Of a DNA stretch of 64,000 nt, positions 1,732-56,614 are shown one piece after another; the first letter of the stretch is position 1, and every line of letters begins with the position of its first letter. Where the stretch lies: assembly GCA_035578175.1 (NCBI GenBank), contig JAQMRL010000010.1:31364784-31428783 (forward strand). The letters run 5' to 3'. Made by a program: the position numbers and the translations under genes. Under the pieces are notes generated by a model. It saw only the letters and a program-made list of their open reading frames with translations, had not been told where the DNA came from and ran no database searches. Source of the DNA: Catonia carolina (Eukaryota; Arthropoda; Insecta; Hemiptera; Achilidae).

Positions 1732-3304
1732 ATGAATTTAACAATGTATTTAAAGGTTACGTCTAGATCGATATTAATAAATTAAGAAAAGTACTTTCAC
1801 GAATACCCAAACATTTTCTCCTAAATAATTGTAAACAAACGGAAACTGAATCGTGTTGGTTTAGTTTTAGTTCTAAATATTCCCGATTATTCGCTGAGAG
1901 TTGGCAATCGTCGATTCTGAGATGATGTAACCGCTTCTTGAACCGGTCACAAAATCGGATTTTGCTTCATAGCATTGCAATATTGTCGTTATAGTTTTAA
2001 TTTCATCTACAGACAGCGTTGCTGTTTTGTACAATAGTTTTGAAATGTATGAAGTAAATTTTTACGTATAATACAGTAGTTTCAGTTGCTTATTCTCCTT
2101 GTATTTCTCTGTTGAAACCACGCTGTCCAAGAGCTAAATTTGGTAATTTTTTGGTTAACATGATGTGTTTTTGCATATATTTTATTTATATAAAAGTAAC
2201 GATTCGTATATAATGAATTTTGAAAATAGAGCATAAGAAAGTTTTAAACAATTTAAAACAAAATTGTCTAAAAATTATTTTTAAATAAATTGTTTCAGTA
2301 TCCGTTACTGTGAGATTAAAATTTCAGTAATGTATTTATTCTATTCGTTTTCTTGTTATTTTGATGTCACGTGACAACGTTTGTGATTTATAGCAAATTT
2401 TTAATGATTTCTTTACGGTTCGGTGATTATAAATTCTCTGACGGTCTAGAAAAATGTCATTGCCGACTGTAGGGTTAAGAGTGATTCGATTTTCGGTCAT
2501 GTCTGGCATTTTTATCCGTCAACATCGTTGTTCTTCATCGTCTATGACAAGGATTACTTTGCAAAACATTCGGACATAACATGATAGATAAAATGTTTTT
2601 TACAGTTTTTGTATCAGGTCAATATGAATATTTCAAATAAAATACTAACAACTTAGTTGTATTCATAAAAATGTAGTGTTATACTTGAATTTAAATATGT
2701 ATATTTATGTATTCTTTTTTTTACAGGTATGTGTGGACATAAATAATAACTACATCTATTGTTCCGTATCATAATAAAGAATAAGGTCAGTAATATAGTT
2801 TCTTATTTTGTATTTTATGTAGAAATGGATACAGCCAACGCTGGTGGCCGTCTGGCTATCTGTGTATAATAAACTACAAATATATAAAAAGACCGATTTG
2901 CTTTATTACCTTATACCACGAAACGCTGAATATTTAATAACATTAACTAACTAGAGTTTGCTTGTAGCTGAATATAGGGCAATATCTTTTAAATTGTTTT
3001 ATATGGAAAAACCTTTATAAAAGTGTTATACATTTTATCAACTCAAATGAAGTGAACTATATTGTTATTGGTTTGAATTTTATAATGACCGTTCTTCATG
3101 CGGTAACACCATATTCGCTTATGTATATATTTATTTTAATTTTTTTTATTCCACTTCCTGAATTTTTTAAATTAAAGTTTCTTCAGTTTGGATTGAATCT
3201 TAAGGAACACCAGTTTTGAATTATAAATTGAGAGGGTAAAATATGTATTTGTAATTTAAAAAATTCGTATTAATAGCTTTTGCAAAAAAAAGTGTTTGTA
3301 TATA
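1732..3304. other. AT-rich interval, nothing recognised
   Basis: No reading frame of note, no tRNA-like box, no repeat shared with the rest of the window. Roughly even AT-rich sequence with A/T homopolymers. Confidence 0.5.
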
Positions 3305-6881: not shown

Positions 6882-7808
6882 CGAGGTGTGACAATTAAAT
6901 AACGAGACTGACGTTGTAAGAAATTTTATTTTAATTTTATACATAATCACGTATTGTCACCTTCAATATACACTCCTTCTCTATCCCTACAACGCTCCAT
7001 GCGAATTTTCCATTGTTGGAAACAATGCTGGAAGTCATCTTCTGTCAGCTCCTTCAGGAAATGTGCCGCTTTCTCTTTTACAGTTTCCTTAGACTCAAAT
7101 GTTCCCTTTTAATGCAAATTTCACCTTAGGGAACAGTTAGAAGATAATAACATGTGATGAAACGTGGATTTTTACTTATGATCCGGAAATGAAGCGCCAA
7201 TCCATGTACAGGAAGAGCCGAACTTCACCGAGAGCCAAAAAAGCTCGAATGAGTAAGTCAAAATTTAAAGCAATGATGATTGTTTTTTTTTATATCCATA
7301 GGATTGTGTACCTTCACTGGGTTCCTGAAGGTCAAACAATTAATCAATATTACTACCTTGAGGTACTTTCTAAACTACGTCAAAGAGTAAGGAAAAAACG
7401 CCCCGAAATATGGAAGGACAAATCATGGGTTCTCCACCAAGGAAATGCACCAGCTCATTCCGCGTTATCTGTCAAGAGGTTCCTAGCCAAGTACAGCATC
7501 TCAGTGTTAGAACATCCACCTTATTCACCAGATCTTGCACCATGTGACTTCTACCTGTTCCCTAAGGTGAAATCTGCGTTAAAAGGGACAAGATTTGAGT
7601 CCGTGGAAGCTGTTAAAGAGGAAGCGGCACGTGTTTTGAAGGAGCTGACAGAAGATGAATGCCAGCACTGTTTCAAGCAATGGAAAATTCGCATGGAGCG
7701 TTGTAGAGATATTGAAGGAGCGTATATTGAAGATGACGATAAGTGAATATGTATAAAATAAAAATGAATTTTTTTACGTCAGTCTCGTTATTTAATAGCC
7801 ACACCTCG
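6882..7808 (+). mobile_element. Rearranged mariner element M2, complete with both ends and TA duplication
   Basis: Bounded by TA at 6880-6881 and 7809-7810. The outer TIR reads CGAGGTGTGACAATTAAATA on the left and is complementary at the right. The inverted ends are unusually long. 6,882-~7,135 is the reverse complement of ~7,560-7,808, so the left end is a second copy of the 3' third of a mariner, including its transposase C-terminus. Forward transposase sequence starts at 7,141, just before the first catalytic block. Total length ~927 bp, with ~250-bp arms and a ~420-bp loop. The 5' half of a normal mariner is absent. Confidence 0.85.
7141..7746 (+). pseudogene. Partial mariner transposase (catalytic region only)
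   Basis: The frame is open from 7,141 through 7,746. It begins with the first catalytic block (CDETWIFTYDPE) and continues through WVPEGQ to HQGNAPAH and YSPDLAPCDFYLFP. The conventional ATG lies at 7,189, after the first catalytic Asp. Mariner enzymes use a D,D34D triad. Here the first and third Asp are present and correctly spaced, but the second is Gly (HQGN for HQDN). The N-terminal DNA-binding helix-turn-helix region is missing. It therefore cannot encode an active transposase. A non-autonomous element moved by a relative is the likely status. Confidence 0.85.
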
Positions 7809-36386: not shown

Positions 36387-37272
36387 TGTAATATGAGACA
36401 CTTATACATACAAACAACAGACCGTACGTAAATTCATACAAAAATTAACCCCACTCACACATAAACATAAACACACAAATTTACACAATCAACATAAATA
36501 CCAGATGATTTACCACCTACAGATGATGAGTAATGAGAATAATAAAAAAAAAATTAAAAGAAAATTTTCTTAAAATAATAAAATGGATTGTTAGTTCATT
36601 CCATTTTAAATCTTTTAAGAAACAAGACATACTCTACAATTTTTAAGATAAAAGGGATTTTTGAATATTCATTAATTTTATTTTATTAAGAATCAATTCA
36701 ATAATTTTAGAAGATTTAAGTTTAGAAGATTTAACTATAAAGAAATTCAACAATTTTAACAAATTTTAAAGGATTTTAAGATTTTAATCATTTTAAATTA
36801 TTCACACTCAATCTGTTCGTTGCAGGGCTAAAATAAATTGTTCTGTTTCTTATCACATGGTCAGCCAATTAAATGACTGAATCATTTAAGAACAGAAGAG
36901 GTAGAGGTGCAAAAGACACTAATCAGAGTTATCTCCTCTGAAAGTAATGAATTTCATTGTACAGCCAGACCCTGTGGTGAATGAAGTGAAGGTGTCATTT
37001 GCAGAGTGGAAAATATGTGCTTTTCAGAGGGCCCGGCATGCTGATAAGCGTACTTTTCCACTCAGTGAGGAAGGCAACGGTAAACCACCTCACTCCTCGT
37101 TTTACTTAGTAAAACCTCTACAGGTTCAAACCAGCCTTTTGGCTGATGACCTAAACAACACACAATCATTTTAAATATTTTAAAATATTTATTAAGAATT
37201 TTCAAATAAAGAAACGTTGAATTTCGAGATCTTAAAACTTTTTTGGATTTTTATTTACGAACCTCTGGGACA
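36387..37272 (+). repeat. 5' LTR of the Ty3/gypsy element, interrupted by Rep-A
   Basis: Starts TGTAATATGAGACAC and ends CCTCTGGGACA. The LTR sequence breaks at 36,798 and resumes at 37,164 because Rep-A copy A16 inserted with a 13-bp duplication. An AATAAA-like motif (AAATAAAGAAACG) lies near 37,187. Confidence 0.93.
36799..37163 (+). repeat. Rep-A, copy A16, inserted in the 5' LTR with 13-bp target duplication
   Basis: Flanked by AATCATTTTAAAT (36,786-36,798 and 37,164-37,176). The undamaged 3' LTR gives the empty site. The copy is 5' truncated (begins TATTCACACTCAATCTG) and ends GCTGATGACCTAAACAACACAC. 5' truncation plus a variable-length target duplication is the signature of LINE-mediated target-primed retroposition, so Rep-A is a SINE or short LINE derivative. 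Confidence 0.93.
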
Positions 37273-37276
37273 AAAA

Positions 37277-37289
37277 TGGTGCCGTGACC
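37277..37289 (+). promoter_or_regulatory. Primer-binding site of the Ty3/gypsy element
   Basis: TGGTGCCGTGACC lies four bases after the 5' LTR and would pair with a tRNA ending GGTCACGGCACCA. I do not assign the tRNA. Confidence 0.75.
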
Positions 37290-37595
37290 AGGATAATTTC
37301 AATAGAAAAATTTCAATAGAAGATTTCAATAAATAAATTCAACAATAAAATTGGGAAGGATATCAAAACAATAAAAAGGACTAACCAGCGAAAATTCATC
37401 AAACAAAAATCATCAAACAACATCCAATAAAATACGTCAAGAGAGAGAAATCCAAAATAAAATATAAATCTTCTAAAATTTACAAAAAACAAATTATAAA
37501 GAACTCACATCTGACAGGTATACCGACGTCGACTGGTAAGTCATCTATTACATACACATAAATAATCATCATCAACAAACAAAACAAATAGAAAC

Positions 37596-40500
37596 ATGAA
37601 CAGACAGGTAGCACCGATTCTTGATTCCACTAAACTAGACGAAACAAACCTTAACTTCCAACTTAGAATACGGAAAAGCACAACAACAGGAAACATAAGA
37701 CAAAAAAGGCAAAGATTACAAAAACTCTTAGATAACGGGCGACAAATCGATTTAACTACATTACATAGATTTGACATGGATAAACAACTGACAGAGTGTC
37801 AAAACTATTTAGTAAGGTTAAGAAACATAGAGAATTTAAATGAATTAGAAAAGTATAATGCCGAAATTTTTGATGATCGGCTTAACAAAATATTAACATT
37901 CATATTACCCAACAAACCAGATAAAGTCGTAGGCTTTCAAAATTTACGAGAGGGATTTGATATTTGGAAGGCTAATGGGTTGCATAATTTCGAAGTTGGA
38001 TCTAATTTCGAGCAAAACTTAAATCCTGAAGAGGCACATTTAGGGAATAATTTCTTACCTGACCAACAACAAGGAATTCTTAATTATGATCAAATTAATC
38101 TTATGCATCACCCAGAAATGCAAAATCCTGTTCTTAGAAACGAAACCCCTGACATATTAATACCAAATGCCCTTATTGATTCTGGTTCCACACACAACAT
38201 TATTAACCAACAAATGTATAAACTTTTAAAGGCCGAGAAGGCGATTATAAAAGAGGAAAATATTAAAGCCATTTGTCTTACAGCTGATAGGTTTCCTCTA
38301 GAAATTAATAAGCAGGTCTGGATTAAAATTACTCTACAAAATATATCATGGAAAATAAATTTTAAAGTATTAACAAAAATACAGCACAAAATAATACTTG
38401 GAATGCACTTCCTACAAAAAACACGTGCAATATTTAACGCCACAAGGTCTGTGATAACTTTTGACTGGTTGAAAAACCAAAAATTTTATTTAATAGATTT
38501 ATACCCAGATCAGATTAATAATGTGGAACAAAGTGAGTATATTAAAAATAAAATTAATAATTTATGTAAGGAATTTCCTGACGTACTCACTACTAAATTA
38601 GGCTGTACCCACGTATTAAAATATGATATTAAACTTAAAAATAGTGAAATTATAAAATCTAGACCCTATCCATTAAATCCAATAAAAACACTTCAAATGA
38701 AACAACAAATTGATAAATTATTAAAAGATAAAGTAATTAGAGAAAGTGTTTCGCCTTATTCATCTCCAGCGTTTTTGATTCCAAAACCGAATGGCACGAG
38801 TCGTTTAGTCGTAGACTATCGCTCAGTCAACTTAATAATTGACTCAGAGGCCCAACCTTTACCGAATATAAATCATGCTTTTCAATGGTTTTCCAATGCA
38901 CGATGGTTCAGTACATTAGATTTAGCGCAAGCGTACCATCAAATACCATTGACAGAAAAATCTCGTCAAATCACCGCGTTCTGTACCCCGGATGGCTTAT
39001 ATGAATATGAGAGATTACCTTTTGGTTTGTCGACTGGCGCACAAGTTTTAACACGTCTTATGAATACAATATTCAAAAACATTAAATATAAATTTGTATT
39101 TAATTACATGGATGATATATTAATATATTCCAAAAGTTTTTCAGAACATTTGAAACACATTAAAATAGTATTGTCAATTCTGCGGAAAGCTGGCATTACA
39201 GTTAATTCTGATAAGGTAACATTTGCCGTAAATGAAATACCGTTTCTTGGACACACATTATCGTACAAAGGGGTCTCTATAGACTCAACTAGGACACAAA
39301 AAATATTGGAGTACCCGCAACCTACGTCAGTGAAACAAGTACATCGATACTGTGGTATGATTAATTATTTTTCTAAATTTATCAAAAATTATGCTGATAG
39401 AATCGAACCCCTGAATAAATTGCGTCGTAAAAATACTCAATTTTTCTGGGGAGAATCACAGAAAATAGCGTTTGAAGATCTTAAACAGGCAATTGCCAAT
39501 CCTCCAGTACTGGCAATACCAGACTTCTCTAAAACTTTTATCTTACAAACAGATGCGTCGGATACAGGTCTAGGAGCTGTCCTGCTTCAGGAACAAGAAG
39601 GGTCTAGACGACCTATAGCGTACGCTTCTAAGACGTTAACGACAGCCGAAAGGAAGTTTTCTGCGTATGAAAGGGAGTGTCTTGCGGTCGTTTTTGCAAC
39701 AGATCATTTCAGGACCTATTTAGCACATCGTGAATTTCTTTTAGAAACCGATAATCAAGCCTTAGCCTGGCTTCTTTCCAGACCAAAACAGTTGGGTAGA
39801 CTGGCTAGATGGTTACTTCGGTTATCTGTTTTTAAATTTAAAATTAATCACATCCGTGGTTCGGATAATAATGTGGCGGACGCATTATCGAGGATGTACG
39901 ATTTAAATAATGAAGATATCTCAAAAGATATTTCTTATATTAATACTTTATTATCACAGTTCCCCCTATCTTTTACAGATATAAGACAACATCAGGAACA
40001 GGATACCTTTATTCTTCAACAAAAACAACAAATGGATAATAAATTCTGTTTATCCAAAGGAGTCCTATGTCTAAAAGATAAAAACAATAATCCGACCAAA
40101 ATCGTTCTCCCCAATTCCTTAAAAGATTTAGTATTTAAATATTTTCATCATTCGGAAATCGGTGGACATTTAGGTGTCGCTAAAACTATACACAAAATTA
40201 CACGGTATTTTTATTGGCCGGCTGTATATCAAGAAATTCCTTTAAAAGTGAATGCTTGTACAACCTGCCAACGCAGCAAACCTGGAATGAATTATAAATG
40301 GGGAAATCTCAGTTCCAGAGTTCCAACAACACCGTTTGATACACTGTTTATTGATACAGTGGGTAGTCTACCAAAAACCAACCAAGGGTACAAATATATT
40401 CTAGTGGTGGTAGACAGTTTTTCAAAATTTACATGGTTAGCTCCATTAAAAAACACTAATACATCTTCCATTATAGAGGAATTAAAACGTATTTTTCAAA

Positions 40501-40700
40501 ATTACTCCATCCCGAGGTTAATCGTCACAGATAATGCCAAAAATTTTAATTCAATAATTTTTAAAAACTTTTGTTTCAATCTAGGCATAAAACGAACCAC
40601 TCTCTCCCCCTACCATCCACAACCATCTCACGCCGAACGATTAAACCGAAATCTTAGGTCTATTCTTATTGCATACCATGCAACTACTCACACAACCTGA
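37596..40700 (+). pseudogene. pol: Ty3/gypsy Pol polyprotein: protease, RT, RNase H, integrase (C-terminus cut by a stop)
   Basis: 1,034 codons from ATG to TGA. Residues 1-~180 are Gag-like or linker sequence without a CCHC knuckle. The aspartic protease active site DSGSTHN is at ~195. The RT has LPFGLSTGAQ at ~473 and the catalytic YMDD at 504-507. RNase H carboxylates are near D653, E692 and D719. The integrase zinc finger shows HH...H with C888 and C891. The integrase core is D920, D979 and E1014, a proper D,D35E. RT, RNase H, integrase order is typical of Ty3/gypsy. Translation stops at TGA TAA shortly after the catalytic Glu, and the integrase C-terminus continues downstream in the same frame. 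Two small compensating length changes around the stops would explain this. The whole gag coding capacity expected before the protease is missing. Confidence 0.93.
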
Positions 40701-41147
40701 TAAATCTCTATTTTGGTTTCAATTACCTTCAATATGGCTCAACATAACGCGCATGGGGAATGTCCATTTGATATATTGCATACTTTTCCAGCTCAAACAC
40801 CGTTGGATAGGGCATGGAATATCCAAGATATCCTTCATAGAAATCCTGTACGTTCAAGTAACATGATGTGTGACATTAGAAGAAAACTAATTAAATCTCA
40901 TCATGATATGGCACGCCGATATAATGCTATGCGCCACCCCAATCCGTTTTTGGTGGGAGATAAAGTTTTGCTTAAAACTCACCCCGTAAGTTCGAAACGG
41001 AAAAATATTTGTGCAAAAATGGCATACCGATGGTCTGACCCATTTTATATCATCGGCTTCTCCACTCCAGTTACAGCCTTACTCCGTAAGACCGTTGGGG
41101 GAGAAATAACTAAAGAACACATTTCTAACCTTAAAAAGGTTACATAA
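40701..41147 (+). pseudogene. Integrase C-terminal remainder of the Ty3/gypsy pol
   Basis: After the double stop the same frame is open again from ~40,704. Its amino end matches the region following the catalytic Glu in gypsy integrases (NMAQHNAHGECPFDIL). Near the end is LVGDKVLLKTHP, then a block around WSDPFYII that corresponds to the GPF/GPY module. It ends at TAA 41,145-41,147, ~245 bp before the 3' LTR. It has no start codon of its own in a good context. Confidence 0.85.
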
Positions 41148-41376
41148 TTTGCTAAAAATAATACTTTTTAGGTGATGTCTGTCGCGATACTCGAGCTTGC
41201 GATGATTGTAACAAAACAAAAAAAATGCTGTTTGCATGCTGTATGAATGTATTATTGAAAGGGGCCCCGAATGAACGGATTTTACCGTCTCAAGCCGACA
41301 ACTGCTACGTACTCACCTTCTTTTTTTTAACATTTAAGCACCCACCCCTTATCCTTTTTGCTTATGCATACTCCCC

Positions 41377-41393
41377 GGGGGGGGGGGGAAGAT
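41377..41393 (+). promoter_or_regulatory. Polypurine tract of the Ty3/gypsy element
   Basis: A run of 12 G followed by AAGAT, immediately before the 3' LTR TGTAATATG; it serves as primer for plus-strand synthesis. The preceding CCCC could pair with it. Confidence 0.8.
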
Positions 41394-41901
41394 TGTAATA
41401 TGAGACACTTATACATACAAACAACAGACCGTACGTAAATTCATACAAAAATTAACCCCACTCACACATAAACATAAACACACAAATTTACACAATCAAC
41501 ATGAATACCAGATGATTTACCACCTACAGATGATGAGTAATGAGAATAATAAAAAAAAAATAAAAAGAAAATTTTCTTAAAATAATAAAATGGATTGTTA
41601 GTTCATTCCATTTTAAATCTTTTAAGAAACAAGACATACTCTACAATTTTTAAGATAAAAGGGATTTTTGAATATTCATTAATTTTATTTTATTAAGAAT
41701 CAATTCAATAATTTTAGAAGATTTAAGTTTAGAAGATTTAACTATAAAGAAATTCAACAATTTTAACAAATTTTAAAGGATTTTAAGATTTTAATCATTT
41801 TAAATATTTTAAAATATTTATTAAGAATTTTCAAATAAAGAAACGTTGAATTTCGAGATCTTAAAACTTTTTTGGATTTTTATTTACGAACCTCTGGGAC
41901 A
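41394..41901 (+). repeat. 3' LTR of the Ty3/gypsy element (intact, 508 bp)
   Basis: TGTAATATGAG to CTCTGGGACA, followed by the CTTA duplication at 41,902-41,905. It matches the 5' LTR apart from two single-base differences seen by eye and the Rep-A insertion. Confidence 0.93.
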
Positions 41902-43583: not shown

Positions 43584-43719
43584 ACTTTCTCTTGCCTATA
43601 TGAATATATAGGAAGGAAAGTATTGTTTTCATGTCGATTTTTCGAAATCGAGTTTTCACCGGATCTATACGTTTTCAGACCCCCTGAACCCAAAAAACAT
43701 GTTTTTAGCGATTGGTCTG
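43584..43719 (+). mobile_element. Rep-B7, left piece
   Basis: ACTTTCTCTTGCC to GCGATTGGTCTG, where the sequence breaks into the LTR element. The rest of the copy is at 56,605-57,449. Confidence 0.9.
43715..43719. other. Target-site duplication (GTCTG), left, of the env-carrying LTR element
   Basis: GTCTG precedes TGTCAGG; GTCTG recurs at 56,605-56,609 after TTTACA. Confidence 0.85.
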
Positions 43720-44947
43720 TGTCAGGTATCCTATAAAAATATTGGAAATTGTTGTTGATTTTAAAATACATGTCATATGTAATAATTTGAAACTTGTATT
43801 GTGCCTGTAATAAAAGTAGGGAAGATTATTATTAAAATGTACCGTGTTTAAGAAGCACGAGAATTAGTGTTTCCTTTGAACAGGATTTAATTTTTAAAAA
43901 AAAATTCTTTAATTTAAGGTATGATTTTGTTGTTCGTGAGGTAGTGTGAGTGATTAAAACGTATTCCAAGTAGATGTCTCCATTCTTCTTCTCCATTCAG
44001 CGGTAATAACCTGTAAATTTCACTCCACCACTTACCTGTTTTAAAATAATCTATATTAAAGGTTGCCTCCACCAGGACGTCGTAGAACGGCCCAACGTCC
44101 AAGACCCTGAAATTTCCTATGAAGGAATTTAAAAAAAAGGAAAGTTTGGGGGAAGTTTTGATAGAAGAATCAAAACCATGTTTCCAGTTGTTACTGTGAA
44201 ATATCAGCTCAGATTTCTCTAGAGAGCCACTGTTCTCGCTTTGTGGTTTGCGAGAAAGTACGGCTGTTTTCAGATTACGGAATCCTTTCAGACAGTGAAC
44301 ATAAATTTTGTAACCAAAACATATTGCAACTTAATAAAAATCACCATACAAGGCCATTGGTGAATAAATCTTGGAGAAACAAGAAATTTCAGTAAATTCG
44401 CCAAGACATATACTTTTTTTTTTTTCTTCAAAATAAATAAGCAAACACGGTGCAGTGTTTAATATGGAGATTCAAAAAAAAATATTTTTGTAGGTACAGT
44501 ATCTTTATAACAGTACTCAGAACCTTATAACTGTACTGAATAACGTTCATTCAAGTATCACCCATTATGAATACAATTCAATGTTGGAGTACATCCATCT
44601 GAAAAACTTATTTCTAGAACTAATCTAACAAAATGGGAAGATATATTTTTAAAAATAAATACAAGAGACGAATTTCAGTTTAACATTTTAGATTTATTTT
44701 TATAAATTTATATTTTTTTAAACGTTTCTTTTTGGTATTTAATTTAAAGTTTTTAACATTTTATAATTAAAATTTTAAATAATATTTCTTCTTTTTTTAA
44801 ATTTGAACAGAATTAAATTATTTTTGTTAATTATTTTTATTTTTTATATATTTTTAACGTATTTAAAGTAGGTATTTAATTTAAAGTTTTTAACATTTTA
44901 TAATTAAAATTGTGTTTTTATTATTAGCCCATTATTATTATTTTTAA

Positions 44948-44981
<34 letters not shown>

Positions 44982-45788
44982 TAATCAAAAAAACTAAATG
45001 ATTTCACTAATTCTACATGAAATTTTTTTTTATTTACTATTATTTAACTATATTTTTGTTTTATATTTTCCATTTAAAATGGTTCTAAAAAAAAAGGTTA
45101 TTTTTTTCTTTTCTTCATTTTTTTTAAATTTAGTTGTACAAAAGAAAATTAAAAGAAAATTACCTTTTTTAGTGAGTATCCAATCACAGCACCTTCGAAC
45201 TTTACGCGTACACAATAGAAGAAAAACTCTGACGATCTTCTACACACACACGGCTGACCGGGGCGCTAATTACCGGCGTACGGAGGGGGGAAAACCAATC
45301 AAACTAGCCGTTACGAAAGACGTTGACAAACCGGCGTAAAACAAACGCGCCAATTGGCCGCAAAAAGTGCTGAAGTAACAGTAGGCCCCTCTACAAAAAG
45401 TACGTAGAGATGAAACTGAAAAACTGTTCCCAGGCTCTGGAATTGCAAAGTAAGGGCTTTAAACAGTGAGAAACGAAAATAGGCCTTTAGGCCTCCTTAT
45501 TTCCCACGAGAAAATGCTATGTAAAAACATGTGTAATAAAACCAACTAGAATGAACTAATAAAACGTGATTTCTTTATGAAATAATAAAAATTATTGAAA
45601 AGAAATACGTTATGTAAAATTACAAACTTTTATTCATAATAAAATAATATTTTTCTTCCTTAACGAATAAAGAAAAAAAACACCATTTTAATTATTTTAG
45701 AAAGACAAAAATTTGATCAACTCCAAGGGTCTAGGGAGATTTCCAACAAAAGTCGAAAATTTGGAATAGTAAAGTCAAAAACTTTACA
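43720..45788 (-). repeat. 3' LTR (in element orientation) of the env-carrying element
   Basis: 2,069 bp. In plus-strand reading it runs from TGTCAGGTATCC to AAAACTTTACA. It contains a (TTA)n microsatellite at 44,949-44,982 and a GC-richer block at 45,170-45,500. A 113-codon plus-strand frame (44,998-45,339), duplicated in the other LTR, is low-complexity at its start and has no recognisable domain. Confidence 0.93.
45170..45500 (-). promoter_or_regulatory. GC-rich block in the LTR, possible U3 or promoter region (unproven)
   Basis: Against very AT-rich surroundings this segment has CG-rich strings (CGGGGCGCTAATTACCGGCG, ACCGGCG, AACGCGCCAATTGGCCGC). In element orientation it falls in the first ~15-30% of the LTR, where U3 regulatory sequence is expected. 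No TATA or initiator can be fixed by eye. The same block is at ~55,986-56,316 in the other LTR. Confidence 0.3.
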
Positions 45789-45800
45789 TTCCCCCACTCC
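45789..45800 (-). promoter_or_regulatory. Polypurine tract of the env-carrying element
   Basis: On the minus strand GGAGTGGGGGAA abuts the 3' LTR start TGTAAAG, exactly where a plus-strand primer is expected. Confidence 0.85.
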
Positions 45801-46475
45801 GGTATATGGAAAACCCAAAGATGGGCTGAAAGGGGGAAAACTAGAAAAAAAAAATTTACGGGAATTCGGGAACACTAATTGGATTGTGTAGAAACAAAGA
45901 TTTCTATGCAATCATCTCCCTTGGAGCGGGGTGTGTAAAAAAAACTGAAAGATAAACGAATCGTTTGCCAGTGTGTGTGCTGAGAAGTTGCCTAACATTA
46001 GTAAACTTTAAATTGCTGGAACCTGCAATGTCCATCGAGACAAACAGACCGCTATTGAAAGACAAATAGGTCCAACTACTATCCTTGACTCTTAAGTTAA
46101 TAAGACAAAAAAAAGTAAGACAAAAATAATAAAGCGCAATTCCCATTTTTAGGGTTAAACGACTGAGAAAAAAAAAATTACTGTTAGCTAATTCAAAGGT
46201 CTGTTTATTGTAGATTTGCATTGCAGATTGTACATTGTATTGTGCTGTATGTTTTTTTTTTGAATTAAGTAATTAATTAATAAATTCGGAATTTAAAACA
46301 ACTAGCTTTCCGAGACGTAAAAGTATGATGAATGAACGAAAATATGTTTTCCTTATTATTATTGTTTATTACTATTCTTATTAATATTTACTATTTCCCA
46401 ATTACTATTTAAATCTCTTATGCCCATTTCTCTGAATTTAGATGATAAAGGTAGAAATTTAGTAGTTTCTTAAAC
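45801..46475. other. Non-coding stretch between env stop and polypurine tract
   Basis: ~675 bp in element 3' region. A 105-codon minus-strand frame (46,221-45,904) and a 64-codon one have no recognisable domain. I treat this as 3' untranslated sequence. Confidence 0.5.
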
Positions 46476-48395
46476 TCAATCTAACCTACGCAATTCAATA
46501 TGAGTTGGCTTGTTTACCTTTGTGGCTAGTATTTTAATTTTGATATATAAGTATAATTGTATGATGAAAATGATAATTAAGGCTGTGTATACTATAAATT
46601 TAGATACATGATCGGCAAGAATAATGTCTTTCCATGACTTAGGTAGGCTGCTCTCTTGGAAAACATAATCAGGGGTTTCATCATGAATGGAAATTTGAGG
46701 GAATGATAAGTTCCACTTGTGGTTCACAAGGTCAGGGAGTGACGAGATGGAAGGATGGAAATCTGTGTGAAAGGAAAACTTATAATGGTCGAAGGTTGAC
46801 CAGGAAACGGGTAGCAAATGAGTTACCCCCGGCGACTTCGGAGTCCTGGAATCACACGGCACAACCCTGTTGATGATCGGTAACTCTCCTTCCATGACTT
46901 CACATTCGCAGGGCACTTGAATGTCCAAAGCACCGGCAACATTGACTGGAAGTTCGACTGTTGTTGTAGGACAAACTAGACGAGTATTGTGTTGTGGATT
47001 GGTGATGTAGTACCTTGATATTTGCACTTCCGTTATGTAAACTTCTGTCGTTCGCTTATGGCAGACGAAATGGCATTTATGCATTAATTGTTGCAGTGAA
47101 CTGTCTGTTAACATTTGCTTGATGCAATCTGTGTTAATGCTAGAATGCTGTTGGAACCTTGGAATGAAACATAAGCCATTATTGTTCAAGTCGCAAGAAG
47201 ATGATGGTGATAGAGTTCGCACTCGTGGTCCACTCCTGATTACGTAAATATGTGGTGTTTCCAGTGAACAGATCTGGTTTTCCCATAGTAGTGGTATTGG
47301 AGCAACTTGAAACAGTGTATGATATACCGATGTGGTGATGATGGGTACTTGTAGTTTTAATAGAATTTTCGTTTTTGAAAAAACGCAAGTTGTTATTGGC
47401 TTTTCATAATAGAGGTGAGCTTCTTGTATAGGCAATACTAATTGTTGATTGCCTTTGTGAAGTTGTAAAGACAAATTTCGTAGATCAGCCTGTAGCATAT
47501 CAGGTGTTACTAGTTCCCTAGGTAGCGTCTTCTGTTTGCAAGACATTTGCATTGAAGTCATGTGCGAATAATACGTGTTTAGGAACGATTGCCAATGTAC
47601 ACTATGCAAAATAGTCAGTAGATGATATAATTGTATTAGTTTGGTGTTTTCAGTGTCTTGAATCATTTTAGCGTATAGATTTAATTCTTCTTCCGTTTCT
47701 TGAAGGATGGATTGAACTCGGTGTGTTACCATGTCTATGTTTTGTGTAGATTTTACTAAATTTTGGTGGTCGGAGTGTACAGTTTGGGTGAGGTGGTTAT
47801 AATGTTGCATTAGATATTTTTCGTTATGGAACGTTTCTTGTAGTTGATTTTGTGTCGCAGTTCCACAGCAAAAGTTTAAAAATTCGCCCACAAAGTCTAG
47901 GGCTCTGCGTGTGCGTGAAGGATTCAAATTTGAAATTGGCAGTCCTGTCGTGAGGAGAATATTGAAGGTTTCCTTTGATAGTGTAGTTATACGTTGGAAA
48001 AGTTGACATGCTGGAGACGAGTTGTTGTTGCCCTTAATTGCAGTAGCGAAGTGTTGTTTGAAATCCAGCGGGGTATTTAAGGTTTTACTAGGAAAGGAAT
48101 TTAGTTTAGAGTAGTCGGTGTTTTGGGATTGTGAGCTGTTAATGAATAGTGTTAAATCTGGAAATGGACAGGATAAATTTTGGAATAGATTTGAGGTTTT
48201 CGGTAAATCAGGCTGTGAGTTAAATGGGATAAGGTAGGTTATCAGAATAGAAGAGTCGTAAAGGTACACATCGGAAATATTTCTGATATGGAAACCAGAG
48301 AACAGTTTAATAACGTTATTTGCGCAAGCTACATTTTTCTCGAAGAGAAATAGAAACGCGGACAAGATCAACAATTGCTTTAGTACGGGGGACAT
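46476..48395 (-). CDS. env: Envelope fusion glycoprotein, errantivirus/baculovirus-F type (intact frame)
   Basis: 639 residues without interruption. Residues ~1-24 form a signal peptide (hydrophobic LLILSAFLFLF, cleavage probable after ACA). About six N-glycosylation sequons are visible (for example NIS, NLS, NSS). A furin-type site RTRR at 161-164 separates a small N-terminal subunit from a large membrane-anchored one. Immediately after it the hydrophobic ALDFVGEFLNFCCGTA (165-180) has the form of the fusion peptide of baculovirus F and gypsy-type Env. A heptad-rich region (~186-245) is likely coiled coil. A cysteine-rich ectodomain follows. A single transmembrane helix (~600-618) precedes a ~20-residue cytoplasmic tail. 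Such proteins mediate low-pH fusion of enveloped particles with cell membranes; function here is inferred. The start at 48,395 is preferred because the signal peptide begins directly after it. It is the only credible gene of the element, and its intactness beside a missing gag-pol is the oddity. Confidence 0.93.
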   Translation of the reverse strand: MSPVLKQLLILSAFLFLFEKNVACANNVIKLFSGFHIRNISDVYLYDSSILITYLIPFNSQPDLPKTSNLFQNLSCPFPDLTLFINSSQSQNTDYSKLNSFPSKTLNTPLDFKQHFATAIKGNNNSSPACQLFQRITTLSKETFNILLTTGLPISNLNPSRTRRALDFVGEFLNFCCGTATQNQLQETFHNEKYLMQHYNHLTQTVHSDHQNLVKSTQNIDMVTHRVQSILQETEEELNLYAKMIQDTENTKLIQLYHLLTILHSVHWQSFLNTYYSHMTSMQMSCKQKTLPRELVTPDMLQADLRNLSLQLHKGNQQLVLPIQEAHLYYEKPITTCVFSKTKILLKLQVPIITTSVYHTLFQVAPIPLLWENQICSLETPHIYVIRSGPRVRTLSPSSSCDLNNNGLCFIPRFQQHSSINTDCIKQMLTDSSLQQLMHKCHFVCHKRTTEVYITEVQISRYYITNPQHNTRLVCPTTTVELPVNVAGALDIQVPCECEVMEGELPIINRVVPCDSRTPKSPGVTHLLPVSWSTFDHYKFSFHTDFHPSISSLPDLVNHKWNLSFPQISIHDETPDYVFQESSLPKSWKDIILADHVSKFIVYTALIIIFIIQLYLYIKIKILATKVNKPTHIELRRLD

Positions 48396-48463
48396 TATTC
48401 TTGGATCTCACACAGTGAAAGAATTTACTTTGGTAGTTGTTATAGATTGATATAATTTTAAAA

Positions 48464-48466
48464 CTG
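48464..48466 (-). promoter_or_regulatory. Candidate splice acceptor upstream of env
   Basis: On the minus strand TTGTATTCTCTTCCACGACC AG ends at about 48,464, 68 nt before the env ATG. Errantivirus env is expressed from a spliced RNA; this is a plausible but unproven acceptor. Confidence 0.35.
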
Positions 48467-49979
48467 GTCGTGGAAGAGAATACAATTTAAATTACTTAAA
48501 GCGTGTTCAAGATACAATTACTATGTAATAAAATTAATTAGCTTATTTGTATATTATATTATCTTGTTTATTACTGAGACTTCGTTGATCTTATCTTCAT
48601 ACGGTTAACTTAGATGTTAAGTGGATGAAGCCTTATCTTGTCTTAAACGAAGTGCTGATTTGATTCTCTATCTCACTGGTTTATCAATCGCTTAGCCACC
48701 GAGATATGGACAATATTATATGATGCGTACATAAACAAAGTTTTATTTAAATCTATAAACAGAGGAAATGAACAATAGTGAGTTTTACTCTTAAACTAAA
48801 GTAATTTTAAATAGGGGTGTTGAAAAACAGAATCGTCCTTCATGCCGTTTATGCGAAGAACGGGAGTAAAACAGAATGTGCCGAATAGTATTATACTGAA
48901 ATTATAATTCTAAGTTTAAATGAGTTGTCATAGTACTATTATATACCAACATTCGGATACAACTCTGAATTGTTGTTTGTCTGTCCGTTGAAATTATTAA
49001 CAAAAAAAATCATCAATTCATATTTCAATTAAACCTTTGGTTGCATTGTGGTACTGTCAAAATACGAGAAAAAAAGTTGAATAACCGAAACTAGAAAACT
49101 ACCACCACTCGAAAAGGCAAGTCACCAACCATAACGGGGTAGCCTAGCCTACTTTTCATTAGCAATAACTACCAAACTTACTGTTGTACGGTATATGACT
49201 CAAATATAAGCCTACTGTTCATGCAATACTGTAAATATTAAAACGGTCAAATTCCTACCGCTACAAAACTTCAATATCCTTAGTAGATTAAGAAAAATAT
49301 ATTACAGTGTAGCAAATTTTTAAATATGAAATTACGAAATACCAGATGATCTGAGTAAGAAACACAAACAAATTTACTCAGCAAAACGCTGTACATCTCT
49401 ACTAAATTGTTCACAACGAAATATCAGTAGTGATTAATAAAGCAATACTTCAACGTAATATTAAAGTATGAAACCAAAATAGTCTTAAAACGTATGCTCA
49501 AGATAATTTTATAATTGAACAAAATGTAACCTTTTGCCGAAACCTATCGATGCGAAACCATCTAAAATTTAACATACTGTCCAGTTCAAAACCTGCTGAA
49601 GAAAACCCAATCTAAAAACTTGCTGCAAAACTAAAACTCCTGTACTTGAAATCCAACACAAACAAATTTACAACATACAAAAACCAGCTCCTTAAAAACA
49701 AAATCCTTCACAATCCAAAAATCCATTTCCATTGTAGGGTTAAATAAAGTAAACAAAAAAAATCAAATGGGATGTCTTAGCAAGGAATCAGTGATAACAC
49801 AAAATATCAAAACTTGACAAAGGGTTAGAGCGGAAAGAACCCTTTGTGTGATAACCAAAAAACGAATTGGGGGGGGGGTCGTCCTAGTAGTAAGTGAAAC
49901 AATGAAAGAAAAAAAAGTGTAGTTAATGAATAAAACAAAAACACAGGGCCACAAACAAAAATATTCCACTATCCAGCCG

Positions 49980-50460
49980 TCGACCTAACGGGAGATTTTC
50001 TGTCGAACTTTTCCTGGAAAGCGACCATGCATACCGGCCAGGTACTATCCGACTAAAACAGTGACTGCCTGCTAGCTGTACGCAACAAACCGCAGATCAG
50101 CCCCGTACGAAAATCAAGAGGGAAAAGAATTTTGAGGTTCCGAGATGGATGAGACCCACAGGTAGAAACCACTAACTCGTCTTGAAAAGCAGATTTTCCC
50201 ACATTCAAACAACATTCAGAGGACCCCTTTCATACAACTCATTCACTCGTCAGATTCGGGTCCATTCGTACATGAAAATCTGGTCTTGGAAACAGTATGA
50301 GTTCCCTATGCATCTGAACCAAATCAAAACCGCGACTGAGTCACCGGAACTGTACGCAGGGTACCGTCATACCCTATGCAAGATTCTGTAACCAATCAAA
50401 GTGACGGCAATAACCATGGGCCGGTTAAGCTAACAACCAGTAGTGAAATTTAGTAACTGA
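49980..50460. other. GC-richer island inside the env-carrying element
   Basis: Base composition shifts to roughly balanced over ~480 bp. A plus-strand frame of 69 codons (50,182-50,391) and several minus-strand stretches are open but match nothing I know. It could be a captured sequence or a structured RNA region. Confidence 0.35.
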
Positions 50461-50499
50461 AAGACGGATTGGGCGGACGAAATGTAACTATCTCTCATA

Positions 50500-50720
50500 A
50501 AATCCTCATAAACTCCAAAAATCAACATCAAAAACTCATCATAAACTCCAATAATCATCAAATAATCTCCATCAACTTCAAAACTCAATAACATCATTAA
50601 TCATCATATAACTCCATTAAACATCAATAACTCTTCATCAACTTCAATAATCATCAATAAAACTCCATTCACTTCAATATCATCGCAAAAAAATCCTCAT
50701 TATAATAATTATATAATCTT
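50500..50720. repeat. Degenerate short tandem tract (CATCA / AACTCCA units)
   Basis: Repeated variants of CTCCATAAAC, AATCATCAA and CAACTTCAATAA fill ~220 bp. Confidence 0.65.
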
Positions 50721-53404
50721 CAGAACCTCACAATAAAGTTTGCAAACAAAAAAAGAGAAAAAAAAATCGTATTCCATAAAGTTCAGAAAGCAGCACGTTA
50801 TCTATAGCGCTACTCAAAGAAACTAACTAACCAAACTCCTTAACTCCAAAGTGTAGGGCAGCACGTTATATCTAGCGCGACCCTAAAATTAATCCTGTAT
50901 TAACTCCAAAATAAAAAAAAACTTCTCACACGTGAGTAATTGGTGTAAAAGAACTTTATTGTGAGTCACACTGTATTGCACTGACCGGCTAAGACACTCC
51001 TATAATAAAACTGACAATAAAAAAAAATACCCTATATCCTAACTCTAGCAATCACGAAAACACTCCAAAACTTAAACCTCTGTAAAACAACAACTTAAAA
51101 CATTCCAAAACATCGATTTTCATTAGTTATTAATTGGCAAGGCTATATAAATATAAAAAAAAATGTAGAAAAACATACTGACGGCTAAGAGAAAATAAAA
51201 TGTGAACAACTTGTAGCTAACTGAAAGCAAACTTACCCCAAAAAAAAACCAATAATGTATTCGACAGTCCACAATACAACATGCAGTAGGCCTGCGTTAA
51301 GATACGAGGCAAAAAAAAAATAGTGAATAAATATACCATCCTTGTACATAATACGGGCCTTGAAACATTTATATAATTGTTATGAGACGTAAAGAAAATA
51401 AAAATATTGACTATAAAAAGATCTAAGCAATGACTTTCGTGATTCTGACAGTCCAAACGCAAAATACAACCAAATGTTTCTAGTACAATATATTTAAACC
51501 AAAATCCATCCATCAAATCACGTAATGTGATCCAATACACGGACATTATCCCTATTGAAGACGTTAATTCCTTTATATAAAAAAAAAAAATTGTTATAAG
51601 TCCCAAAATAAACAAATTTAAAATATCGAGGACGGGAACCAAATATCGTTCTATGGCGTTAGTTTAAAATATTTAAAATTTAAAAATAAAACCAATACTA
51701 TAGTTAAAAACAACGTTTTGTTAACAAACTCAGCAGAGGACCTGCAATTTGACATGGATATGTCCACAAAAAAAAACTTGATACACAAAATGCTATTATA
51801 AATTAAAAAAAAAATAATTGCAGAGACAAAGCTGTAAAAAAAAATCAACGAGAATGCGACTAAAATTGGCCAATAGTCAAATGTTACAAGCATTAGAAAA
51901 GCTTCTTAAAAACAGCGCAGGTAGGAAGAAAGACTGTTAGCAAAACTGGAATCCAAAATTGGTCAAAAAAGGTAAGTAAACAGAAATATGATTAAGAGTG
52001 GTAACAAAATTTTGTTAAAAAAAAAGGAATTTAACAGGAAATATAGCAGATAAAGAAACGAAAAACACAATTCAAACAAACACTAGGACTAAAATGGAAA
52101 AAAGAAAAATTGCCCTGAAGTAATAGAAAATAAAAAAAACAAAAAGTTTGGCTGTTAAAAAAAAAGACACGCCTAAAAAACATCTAAAGTATCACCGAAA
52201 TACAAAGAGACTGTAAACAGATGTGCAGAATTTGATTGGAAAAATAGCTTGAATAGATGAAACACAGTTAAGAAAAACTACGGAGAAAGAAAAAAAAATT
52301 TAAAAACAACAATTACAGAATTAAGGATATCGCTTTTAGTTAAATAGAACAAAATAGAACCCTGTCATTGTGAAAAGTCGTGTTAATACCAAATGAAATA
52401 TTAAGCAGAAAGAGACTTATTAGAATAAGAGCAGAAAGAGACTTGAGTGTGTTGTCCCTAACATGAAAATAAATTACTGTTAGTCGATGATGAAAAAAAA
52501 AACAGAATCCAACGGCGTAAACACTATAAAATAAAAAAAATTTGGTGGTAAAAAACCACCATCGGCACCTGTTTAGAAAGATAAACTGAATACTTACGCT
52601 ATCAATACAGATTGTAAATGATAAAGTTGTAAAGCCAAAATGTAGTACCACACAACACCCAAAATAAAATATTCAGAAAACGGAAAAGATATTTGTGACA
52701 GTAAACACACAAAAAAAAATTGAAAGTGTAAGTGTACAAAAATGAAAAACAAAGATTAAATTAAAAATACATTTCAAGGGACTGAATCGAAAAAACTATA
52801 ACTAAACAGAAGCGTAAATAAAACTGCGAATAACTTGCCGCCGATATCAAAGTTGCTAAGGGTCTGGAAAATTTGACGCATTGTGACGAACGAGAATTAA
52901 AAATTAATTGCTTTGGATCTTAGGAAACTAGAACCTAAATCAAACGAAACCCCTACTATAGATTGGACGTTATTTGGCCAGAAACTGGGATGACCTAGTT
53001 GAAAATCTCATTGTTGTTGATTTGATTAAGCCATAACATGAAAATTCCAACGAAAGTTTTATCGAAAACATTACGGGGTAAAACTGTTAATGGAAAAAAA
53101 ACGAAGCACAAAATGTAACAAAACATTATAGAAATATAAGATAAAATAAATAGAAGTAGCTACAAACTGAAACAAAAAGACTACGAAAAATTTCTACTTG
53201 AACTATTGGGTGAGTGACTATGACGACGAGTGCAATTTTACTATACAATAAAAATTGAAGAAAGAAAAAAATTTTTTGATCTCTGTTGACCTTTACTGAA
53301 GACGAATCCTTGAAGGTGCTTGAGCTCCAAAATTGAGATTGAGGACGGCAGTGCACCGTAGTCGAGGGCTACGACTTATGCTAAGGATTAAATATATCTT
53401 TACA

Positions 53405-53407
53405 TAC
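53405..53407 (-). promoter_or_regulatory. Candidate splice donor in the 5' leader of the env-carrying element
   Basis: On the minus strand CGATCTTCCTG|GTATGTAAAG is a strong donor match about 1.1 kb downstream of the 5' LTR. Joined in RNA to the acceptor near 48,464 it would place env on a short leader. Inference only. Confidence 0.3.
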
Positions 53408-54516
53408 CAGGAAGATCGAAAAAGCAGAATCCTTATGGCAGGAAATGCTGGATTTTCCAGAGATGTTAAAGTATGCTGATTACAGGTGTAGCTGCGTGTT
53501 AAGCTCATCTGATATGCGAACTTTAGTAAGACTTCATTAGATTCTCGGCCATTAAATTAAAATGATCATTCTCGAACTTATATAATACTAAAAAAACCAC
53601 ACAAAAAAAAACAACTATTAGTATAACTTCGAATTATTGCTATTTCATTATTAAGTATAAAATAACGTACAATTTTAAAACATAAAATTTCAAATTTTTT
53701 CATTTTTTAAGTTAAATGCTTGTAAAAATAGCGTATAATTTGCATTCTGTGTATAATTGATAAAAATAGTTCACTTCGAACCTCGAACTGCATAACATGA
53801 CTATTATATCAAAACATTAGTCATTGCCATGTCTATACTCATTTTACTCACAAGAAACACGCAAAAATTATGGAAACTTTATTTTGCCCAAAAATCCATG
53901 TCCCAATAAACAAAATGCAATCAAAAATATTGCATAAATCATTCCTATAAAATACGTCAGAATAACAGCTGATTTTAAATTCAACGTGATGGTGCATTAT
54001 GTCACGTAGTTCGATAAAGCATATTATCTTTCACAGTTGTATACGCAATGTTGTGATATACCATGTATTTAATACTACCTATGTATTGTTAAACACATAC
54101 AATAAAAAAAATTATGAATTCACACATGCATCTCTGATATTGTACGTTAGCCTACATCAGAAATAAAACTCCACTGGCTGGCAATTCCACAATGTTGTCA
54201 TGTGTAAAAAAAAAATTAACAAGATAAAACTTATTTACATTGAATAATTATAAATGTAATGTAACTGCTGAAAGAAAACAGAATTATTCACTAAGATCTT
54301 ATAACGGTAATATGAATCCACAGTGTTTTCATCTCGTAAAGAAGTTAAACTAAAAAAAAATACAACTATCCACATTCCAATGCTGCATATCTTGTACATA
54401 ACCCTGAATAAAATGTCCAAGACCTTGAAAAAAAACTACATTAACATAAAATATAACTCAAAAATTTCTGGAAAATAAATTTATTTAAAAAGAAAAAAAG
54501 ATCACTGTCTAAAATC

Positions 54517-54534
54517 AACCTAGGCGCTTCACCA
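54517..54534 (-). promoter_or_regulatory. Primer-binding site of the env-carrying element
   Basis: On the minus strand TGGTGAAGCGCCTAGGTT follows the 5' LTR terminal CA directly; TGG pairs with the tRNA CCA end. It differs from the primer-binding site of the neighbouring Ty3/gypsy element (TGGTGCCGTGACC), so the two belong to different lineages. tRNA not assigned. Confidence 0.85.
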
Positions 54535-55763
54535 TGTCAGGTATCCTATAAAAATATTGGAAATTGTTGTTGATTTTAAAATACATGTCATATGTAATAA
54601 TTTGAAACTTGTATTGTGCCTGTAATAAAAGTAGGGAAGATTATTATTAAAATGTACCGTGTTTAAGAAGCACGAGAATTAGTGTTTCCTTTGAACAGGA
54701 TTTAATTTTTAAAAAAAAATTCTTTAATTTAAGGTATGATTTTGTTGTTCGTGAGGTAGTGTGAGTGATTAAAACGTATTCCAAGTAGATGTCTCCATTC
54801 TTCTTCTCCATTCAGCGGTAATAACCTGTAAATTTCACTCCACCACTTACCTGTTTTAAAATAATCTATATTAAAGGTTGCCTCCACCAGGACGTCGTAG
54901 AACGGCCCAACGTCCAAGACCCTGAAATTTCCTATGAAGGAATTTAAAAAAAAAGGAAAGTTTGGGGGAAGTTTTGATAGGAGAATCAAAACCATGTTTC
55001 CAGTTGTTACTGTGAAATATCAGCTCAGATTTCTCTAGAGAGCCACTGTTCTCGCTTTGTGGTTTGCGAGAAAGTACGGCTGTTTTCAGATTACGGAATC
55101 CTTTCAGACAGTGAACATAAATTTTGTAACCAAAACATATTGCAACTTAATAAAAATCACCATACAAGGCCATTGGTGAATAAATCTTGGAGAAACAAGA
55201 AATTTCAGTAAATTCGCCAAGACATATACTTTTTTTTTTTTCTTCAAAATAAATAAGCAAACACGGTGCAGTGTTTAATATGGAGATTCAAAAAAAAATA
55301 TTTTTGTAGGTACAGTATCTTTATAACAGTACTCAGAACCTTATAACTGTACTGAATAACGTTCATTCAAGTATCACCCATTATGAATACAATTCAATGT
55401 TGGAGTACATCCATCTGAAAAACTTATTTCTAGAACTAATCTAACAAAATGGGAAGATATATTTTTAAAAATAAATACAAGAGACGAATTTCAGTTTAAC
55501 ATTTTAGATTTATTTTTATAAATTTATATTTTTTTAAACGTTTCTTTTTGGTATTTAATTTAAAGTTTTTAACATTTTATAATTAAAATTTTAAATAATA
55601 TTTCTTCTTTTTTTAAATTTGAACAGAATTAAATTATTTTTGTTAATTATTTTTATTTTTTATATATTTTTAACGTATTTAAAGTAGGTATTTAATTTAA
55701 AGTTTTTAACATTTTATAATTAAAATTGTGTTTTTATTATTAGCCCATTATTATTATTTTTAA

Positions 55764-55797
<34 letters not shown>

Positions 55798-56604
55798 TAA
55801 TCAAAAAAACTAAATGATTTCACTAATTCTACATGAAATTTTTTTTTATTTACTATTATTTAACTATATTTTTGTTTTATATTTTCCATTTAAAATGGTT
55901 CTAAAAAAAAAGGTTATTTTTTTCTTTTCTTCATTTTTTTTAAATTTAGTTGTACAAAAGAAAATTAAAAGAAAATTACCTTTTTTAGTGAGTATCCAAT
56001 CACAGCACCTTCGAACTTTACGCGTACACAATAGAAGAAAAACTCTGACGATCTTCTACACACACACGGCTGACCGGGGCGCTAATTACCGGCGTACGGA
56101 GGGGGGAAAACCAATCAAACTAGCCGTTACGAAAGACGTTGACAAACCGGCGTAAAACAAACGCGCCAATTGGCCGCAAAAAGTGCTGAAGTAACAGTAG
56201 GCCCCTCTACAAAAAGTACGTAGAGATGAAACTGAAAAACTGTTCCCAGGCTCTGGAATTGCAAAGTAAGGGCTTTAAACAGTGAGAAACGAAAATAGGC
56301 CTTTAGGCCTCCTTATTTCCCACGAGAAAATGCTATGTAAAAACATGTGTAATAAAACCAACTAGAATGAACTAATAAAACGTGATTTCTTTATGAAATA
56401 ATAAAAATTATTGAAAAGAAATACGTTATGTAAAATTACAAACTTTTATTCATAATAAAATAATATTTTTCTTCCTTAACGAATAAAGAAAAAAAACACC
56501 ATTTTAATTATTTTAGAAAGACAAAAATTTGATCAACTCCAAGGGTCTAGGGAGATTTCCAACAAAAGTCGAAAATTTGGAATAGTAAAGTCAAAAACTT
56601 TACA
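54535..56604 (-). repeat. 5' LTR (in element orientation) of the env-carrying element
   Basis: 2,070 bp, matching the left LTR except for one base in an A run and one A/G difference (GATAGAAGAATC versus GATAGGAGAATC) among the positions compared by eye. (TTA)n at ~55,764-55,797. It is followed by the GTCTG duplication. Confidence 0.93.
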
Positions 56605-56614
56605 GTCTGTGTGT

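What the first reader, a model, noticed from the sequence alone, without database searches (positions are those of the whole stretch)
43720..56604. A young LTR-bounded element that kept an intact env but has no gag-pol
Seen: 5-bp target duplication, ~2.07-kb near-identical LTRs, primer-binding site, polypurine tract, and one uninterrupted 639-codon Env with signal peptide, RTRR site, fusion-peptide-like stretch and membrane anchor. Also seen: no gag, protease, RT or integrase motif in the remaining 6.1 kb of internal sequence on either strand. Known: non-autonomous LTR elements (LARDs, TRIMs) normally lose all genes, and errantiviruses lose env first, not gag-pol. Inference: an env-only passenger mobilised by another element's Gag-Pol, which could pseudotype or bud with helper particles or provide host-usable Env. 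The near identity of the LTRs argues that it moved after gag-pol was lost, if other copies share the structure.
Basis: partly seen in the sequence, partly recalled or inferred. Interest (0 to 1): 0.88.

Follow-up and report, generated by a model that had tools for sequence, protein, structure and literature searches.

The report
Env-only retroelement with full-length helpers
This stretch is one young insertion of a family of retrovirus-like elements that mostly keep an intact envelope gene but carry no gag or pol genes, and it is likely copied by the enzymes of full-length relatives in the same genome, with which it has likely been swapping sequence.

Summary
A 12,885-bp LTR element (43720-56604, minus strand) has 2,068/2,070 matching LTR positions, a GTCTG duplication, a 639-codon env and no gag-pol; paralogous repeats in the window show the empty site. 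Of 16 LTR pairs found, 15 were examined. Ten (window included) are env-only: all ten have clean, mutually distinct 5-bp duplications and nine keep env intact. Four are full-length relatives with gag, pol and the same LTRs and env. One is a deletion derivative. Of 20 further env copies, 12 are env-only, 7 have pol, 1 is unclear. Gag-pol was not simply deleted: about 7.5 kb is replaced by about 2.5 kb of noncoding DNA shared by the env-only copies. Env is conserved (env-only omega 0.19, while adjoining noncoding DNA differs by about 5%). Env-only and full-length copies show no fixed env difference and many shared polymorphisms, as expected if their RNAs are co-packaged and recombine. So an env-keeping, likely helper-dependent satellite is established as a multi-copy, recently moving family. 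What its Env does for it is not shown. Closest known: SFFV, KoRV-D/E, recKoRV, LARDs.

The parts
43715..43719 (.). Target-site duplication GTCTG, left copy
43720..45788 (-). 3' LTR (2,069 bp)
45789..45800 (-). Polypurine tract GGAGTGGGGGAA
   Evidence: sequence; beside the 3' LTR in 14 of 15 elements
46476..48395 (-). env, 639 codons, likely F-like class I fusion glycoprotein
48396..48815 (-). Conserved stretch upstream of env, with predicted splice acceptor (first exon base 48752)
   Evidence: 32 of 427 alignment columns vary in 14 copies; acceptor kept in 14 of 14
48396..51418 (-). Noncoding interior that is also present in full-length relatives
51418..53961 (-). Noncoding filler found in env-only copies, in the place of gag-pol
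53961..54522 (-). Leader, shared with but diverged from full-length relatives
   Evidence: 14 fixed differences in 558 columns
54523..54534 (-). PBS-like TGGTGAAGCGCC; tRNA not identified
54535..56604 (-). 5' LTR (2,070 bp)
54845..54853 (-). Predicted splice donor CAG|GTAAGT in the LTR (G of GT at 54850)
   Evidence: best donor of the element; 9-mer in 14 of 14 other elements
56605..56609 (.). Target-site duplication GTCTG, right copy

Best explanation
This is one young copy of a multi-copy LTR retroelement family that carries an intact env but no gag-pol, and it is likely copied and inserted in trans by the Gag and Pol of full-length relatives that share its LTRs and env in the same genome. 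Shown: the family, its target duplications, the intact env frames, the full-length relatives, and the mixing of env and 3' sequence between the two kinds. Inferred: the LTR makes an unspliced RNA that is packaged by the relatives' Gag together with their RNA; reverse transcriptase switches between the two templates; the relatives' integrase inserts the product. Predicted: env is translated from a spliced RNA that uses the conserved donor in the LTR and the conserved acceptor about 360 nt upstream of env. Inferred: Env is kept because env-only copies add to the glycoprotein that the shared particles use to pass between cells.
For: Ten env-only copies with ten distinct 5-bp duplications and 0-5 LTR mismatches in about 2 kb. 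Four full-length copies with gag, pol (protease, RT, RNase H, integrase) and env between the same LTRs. 0 fixed env differences and 38 shared polymorphisms between kinds, but 14 fixed differences in the leader; env and LTR trees interleave. Env omega 0.194 over 36 env-only pairs; env intact in 9 of 10 env-only copies of the LTR sample, against 11% expected stop-free by neutral substitution alone. 67 of the 69 best-scoring env matches have no stop. Donor and acceptor kept in 14 of 14.
Against: No RNA, particle or protein data. Constraint on env could be imported by exchange with full-length copies; only three or four full-length copies were compared. Env-only singletons are 27 synonymous to 28 nonsynonymous, weaker constraint. 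C91 has LTRs without mismatch but a broken env. C101 27M lacks the PBS side yet has a duplication, so copies also change after insertion or by other routes. At least one ATG kept in all 14 copies lies between the acceptor and env. The tRNA for the PBS is unknown. Gene conversion in the genome could also mix env.
Confidence: 0.65

Rival explanations
1. Env is only a hitchhiker. Env-only copies are mobilised in trans because of their LTRs and leader, and their env stays intact because template switching with full-length RNAs keeps replacing it with selected sequence.
For: 0 fixed env differences, shared polymorphisms and interleaved trees. Singletons in env-only copies are 27 to 28. C91 has matching LTRs but a broken env.
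Against: Alleles seen in two or more env-only copies and in no full-length or C46 copy are still 8 synonymous to 4 nonsynonymous; env is intact in 9 of 10. Both are small samples.
Confidence: 0.28
2. The host uses the Env, as with syncytins, and env-only copies persist for that reason.
For: Intact env under constraint without gag-pol.
Against: Many dispersed young copies, each with its own LTRs and duplication, and no single fixed locus; full-length copies carry the same env.
Confidence: 0.05
3. A private artefact of this copy: a full-length element whose interior was replaced after insertion, or a misassembly.
For: None found.
Against: The same filler, wholly or in part, in ten insertions with different duplications on six contigs; near-identical LTRs.
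Confidence: 0.01

Closest known systems
Spleen focus-forming virus (SFFV) with helper F-MuLV (PMC2585586, passages read)
   Same: A defective retrovirus with an env product, replicated by a helper that supplies the missing functions
   Different: SFFV is an exogenous murine gammaretrovirus whose gp55 is an altered, pathogenic env product; here there are many germline copies of a Ty3/gypsy-type family and the env matches that of the likely helper
KoRV-D and KoRV-E defective proviruses and recKoRV of koala (PMC5696478, passages read)
   Same: KoRV-D/E keep LTRs, packaging region and env with identical internal deletions at several loci; recKoRV has its centre replaced by a foreign retroelement (PhER) and is multi-copy in the germline though not autonomous
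   Different: KoRV-D/E keep integrase and were seen only as somatic insertions; recKoRV has truncated gag and env. Here no gag-pol at all, intact env, and a replaced centre, in the germline
LARDs, large retrotransposon derivatives (recalled)
   Same: LTRs, PBS, PPT and a long noncoding interior, moved in trans
   Different: LARDs have no genes; here env is intact and constrained
Errantiviruses / insect endogenous retroviruses (F-type Env described in PMC12992720, passages read)
   Same: The full-length relatives have Ty3/gypsy pol order plus a third env frame
   Different: 5-bp duplications and TG...CA LTRs here; no Pfam F-protein match; host unidentified; and the env-only state

Membership tests
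LTR retroelement | Paired near-identical TG...CA LTRs with target-site duplication | tested here: met
LTR retroelement | PBS complementary to a host tRNA | tested here: inconclusive
   A PBS-like 12- or 13-mer adjoins the LTR in 12 of 15 elements; the tRNA was not identified; no tRNA gene in the window
Metaviridae (Ty3/gypsy type), for the full-length relatives | Pol order protease, RT, RNase H, integrase | tested here: met
   Pfam order in the pol pieces of one copy, L019 and L020
Errantivirus | F-type Env | tested here: inconclusive
   No Pfam match for Env; low-confidence model ranks F-like glycoproteins among the top Foldseek hits; VIA-align listed helical bundles
Errantivirus | 4-bp target duplication (recalled) | tested here: not met
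   5 bp in 14 of 15 elements, none found in C46
LARD | Long noncoding interior without any gene (recalled) | tested here: not met
   Intact env in 9 of 10 env-only copies
Helper-dependent (trans-mobilised) LTR satellite | No gag-pol of its own, several independent insertions, and a likely helper with the same LTRs in the genome | tested here: met
Helper-dependent (trans-mobilised) LTR satellite | Packaging in the helper's particles shown directly | not testable with these tools
   Only indirect: sequence mixing between the two kinds

The most novel reading that the evidence does not exclude
A split endogenous retrovirus: the genes of one virus are divided between two co-circulating genomic forms, a full-length form that makes the particle and a commoner env-only form that makes much of the envelope, held together by co-packaging and recombination.
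Probability: 0.35. Interest if true: 0.87.

Novelty: new variant of a known kind. Interest (0 to 1): 0.74.

Why it matters
Here a multi-copy, recently moving family lacks gag-pol and keeps env under constraint, beside its likely helpers. It offers a natural system to ask when Env must act in cis or can be shared, whether donors of Env persist, and how often different endogenous RNAs are packaged together, which here leaves a trace in the genome sequence itself.

Tried and rejected
Rejected: decayed gag-pol in the 6.1 kb; a private replacement or nested insertion in this copy; host domestication as the main reading. The neighbouring gypsy element (36387-41901) as helper: its LTR and PBS differ.

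Led nowhere: Env by whole-length protein search, PDB sequences, viral contigs, genome contigs, Pfam for Env and its two relatives, Pfam for LTR frames, Rfam and tRNA scans of the window, structure from one or three sequences (pLDDT 35.5 and 37.4), VIA-align (mostly helical bundles; no viral fusion protein among the 50 rows apart from designed HIV and SARS-CoV-2 mimics). The acceptor at 48463 was dropped because only 1 of 14 copies has it. Eight paper searches for an env-only family listed none that I recognised as a mobile env-only LTR family with intact env; I saw listings and abstract starts only, apart from the passages named in Closest known systems and passages of PMC13172572. Two more searches sought the comparison cases. 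The genome search with the filler and with gag did not complete, so total copy numbers of the two kinds are unknown. Not examined: one 28-kb LTR pair (C1 320.58 Mb) and 9 unpaired LTR hits; one search scored 40 of 462 candidates.
Full report
WHAT IS THERE. The window lies at C2:31364784-31428783 of an unnamed 1.47-Gb genome of 142 contigs. The element reads on the minus strand. LTRs are 2,069 and 2,070 bp and differ by one substitution and one 1-nt indel. The 5-bp GTCTG duplication is real: when the two host flanks are placed side by side they align without a break across the junction to six other copies of a ~1-kb dispersed repeat in the window (81 to 93% identity), five of them aligned base by base. 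The whole 12,885 bp therefore sits as one block inside that repeat.

ENV. The frame runs from ATG 48395 to stop 46476, 639 codons, with a signal-peptide-like start, RTRR|ALDFVGEFLNFCCGTATQ, 17 Cys and a membrane anchor near residues 600-618 (whose numbering starts one residue late). In 5.77 billion predicted proteins three searches found two relatives: P0001 (682 aa, 32% identity over 97% of the 371-residue core searched) and P0002 (632 aa, 42% over the 509-aa query); the first, whole-length search found none. Their alignment keeps the cleavage arginines and the core ALDF-G-FL-CCG-ATQ. No Pfam family matched Env at E<=10, and the matches of the two relatives lie below the curated cut-offs. A three-sequence model is poor (pLDDT 37.4). 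Its Foldseek ranking is nonetheless suggestive: a chu-related virus glycoprotein (E 6e-8) and a baculovirus fusion protein (1.1e-4) are among the four viral models below 0.001 (the other two are uncharacterised or unnamed), and post-fusion RSV F (1.9e-4) leads the solved structures, all with TM-scores of only 0.13-0.15 by the query. VIA-align listed mostly helical bundles. I take Env as a likely class I, F-like fusion glycoprotein, not as proven.

NO GAG-POL. In 48408-54534 the longest stop-free piece is 148 aa (2% of 200 Markov controls reach it). All 25 stop-free pieces of 50 aa or more, both strands, were scanned apart: 0 of 25 matched a retroelement profile. As a positive control, the same scan found protease, RT, RNase H and integrase in the neighbouring gypsy element and a transposase in a mariner fragment.

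THE FAMILY. An LTR probe gave 41 matches, with 40 of 462 candidates scored, so a lower bound. By spacing they form 16 pairs and 9 unpaired hits; I examined 15 pairs. Ten pairs (window included) are env-only. Four, with ~15.8-kb spacing, are full-length, with stop-free gag frames of 495-500 aa in 4 of 4, pol in 3 of 4 and env in 3 of 4 (C1 209M is interrupted in pol and env). One (C46) is a deletion derivative that keeps integrase and env. Pol was profiled in one full-length copy: protease, RT, RNase H and integrase in Ty3/gypsy order; its gag match is weak (Retrotrans_gag E 0.12). Among env-only copies the env frame is intact in 9 of 10 (broken in C91). Clean 5-bp duplications were found in 10 of 10 env-only and 4 of 4 full-length copies, and not in C46. 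The ten env-only duplications all differ from one another. LTR pairs differ by 0 to 5 mismatches in about 2 kb. An Env protein search scored the best 69 of 519 candidates; 67 of 69 have no stop inside. I had planned to fetch 40 of these with their upstream DNA and could fetch short upstream stretches for 20: 12 have the env-only filler, 7 have pol, 1 has neither. Two of the 12 lie 10.8 kb apart on C1 and may be one tandem. That sample was chosen by env similarity and so is biased to intact env; the LTR sample is not.

HOW THE ENV-ONLY FORM IS BUILT. It is not a plain deletion. Leader positions 1-574 and everything from position 3117 on are shared with full-length copies. Between them, about 7.5 kb (705 nt of upstream leader, gag, pol and 263 nt after pol) is replaced by about 2.5 kb of noncoding DNA. 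Eight of the nine other env-only copies hold nearly all of this filler at 92-96% identity; C101 27M holds 792 of 2,544 nt. Where the filler came from is unknown. The noncoding interior is T-rich on the coding strand: skew 0.228 against at most 0.111 in 78 background windows.

MIXING OF THE TWO FORMS. If they were separate lineages, all segments should separate them. Only the leader does: 14 fixed differences, mean difference 0.118 between kinds against 0.046 and 0.057 within. The shared interior has 2 fixed and 169 shared polymorphisms (0.058 against 0.052 and 0.059). Env has 0 fixed and 38 shared. The post-env stretch has 0 fixed and 25 shared (four full-length copies; 10 env-only copies for the shared interior and 9 for the other segments, copies lacking a segment dropped). 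Trees of env and LTR interleave the kinds. Template switching between co-packaged RNAs is the known route to such mixing in retroelements (general knowledge); gene conversion in the genome is an alternative that I did not exclude.

SELECTION ON ENV. Nei-Gojobori omega is 0.194 (36 env-only pairs), 0.105 (3 full-length pairs) and 0.150 (27 mixed pairs) (pairs are not independent; C91 and C1 209M left out because their frames are broken). Among env-only copies, changes seen in two or more copies are 21 synonymous to 10 nonsynonymous, and singletons 27 to 28. Alleles present in two or more env-only copies and in no full-length or C46 copy are 8 to 4; such alleles in one copy only are 21 to 26. 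For comparison, full-length gag gives omega 0.28 (3 pairs) and pol 0.0045/0.0190 (1 pair). If env drifted like the adjoining noncoding DNA (2.6% per lineage), 11% of frames would be stop-free even without indels. So env is constrained in the joint population. Whether constraint acts inside env-only copies or arrives by exchange is open.

EXPRESSION, PREDICTED. The best donor of the element, CAG|GTAAGT, lies in the LTR (with a recalled matrix); its 9-mer is present in the LTR of 14 of 14 other elements. The best acceptor within 500 nt of env (48752) keeps its AG and pyrimidine tract in 14 of 14 copies (10 env-only, 4 full-length); its one variable base is polymorphic in both kinds. The 420 nt before env vary at 32 of 427 columns. 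At least one ATG kept in all 14 lies between this acceptor and env, a difficulty for the model.

COMPARISON. It works like the helper-dependent retroviruses SFFV (PMC2585586) and recKoRV or KoRV-D/E (PMC5696478) (passages read). It is not a LARD, because env is intact, and I do not file it as an errantivirus, because duplications are 5 bp and the F-type test is inconclusive.

VERDICT. An env-keeping, gag-pol-less LTR family that moved recently, with its likely helpers in the same genome: structure and mobility about 0.9; Env retained for a function in spread, more likely than not (about 0.65).

Noticed in passing
window 43690-43719 and L056 (C81:803800-804100): The window copy and the C81 copy are inserted at the same place of the same dispersed repeat (GCGATTGGTCT...), with duplications GTCTG and GTCTC: perhaps a target preference.
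   Followed up: partly
window 36387-41901: A separate gypsy-type element (+) with a 1,044-aa pol frame, a PBS that by recall fits tRNA-His, and a ~360-bp repeat inserted in its 5' LTR.
   Followed up: partly
L016 (C91:228476-238033): Env-only copy with no LTR mismatch whose env 3' part and post-env region are replaced by about 2.7 kb of unrelated DNA.
   Followed up: partly
L018 (C46:13780022-13787520): Deletion derivative that keeps integrase and env and lacks a clear target duplication: perhaps a recombinant.
   Followed up: partly
window 54850-55980, 5' LTR: The LTR holds an exon-like stretch of about 70 nt between an acceptor-like TTTCAG and the perfect donor, and a second donor-like site at 55979: an intron inside the LTR is possible.
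   Followed up: no
window 50495-50684: Tandem repeat of about 30 bp in the noncoding interior.
   Followed up: no
P0001: The more distant Env relative has a much longer, cysteine-bearing C-terminal tail.
   Followed up: no
window 947-62384, many places: About 300-bp repeats (77-85% alike) in both orientations all through the window.
   Followed up: no
window 7141-7743: Mariner-type transposase fragment of 201 aa (Transposase_1, DDE_3).
   Followed up: no
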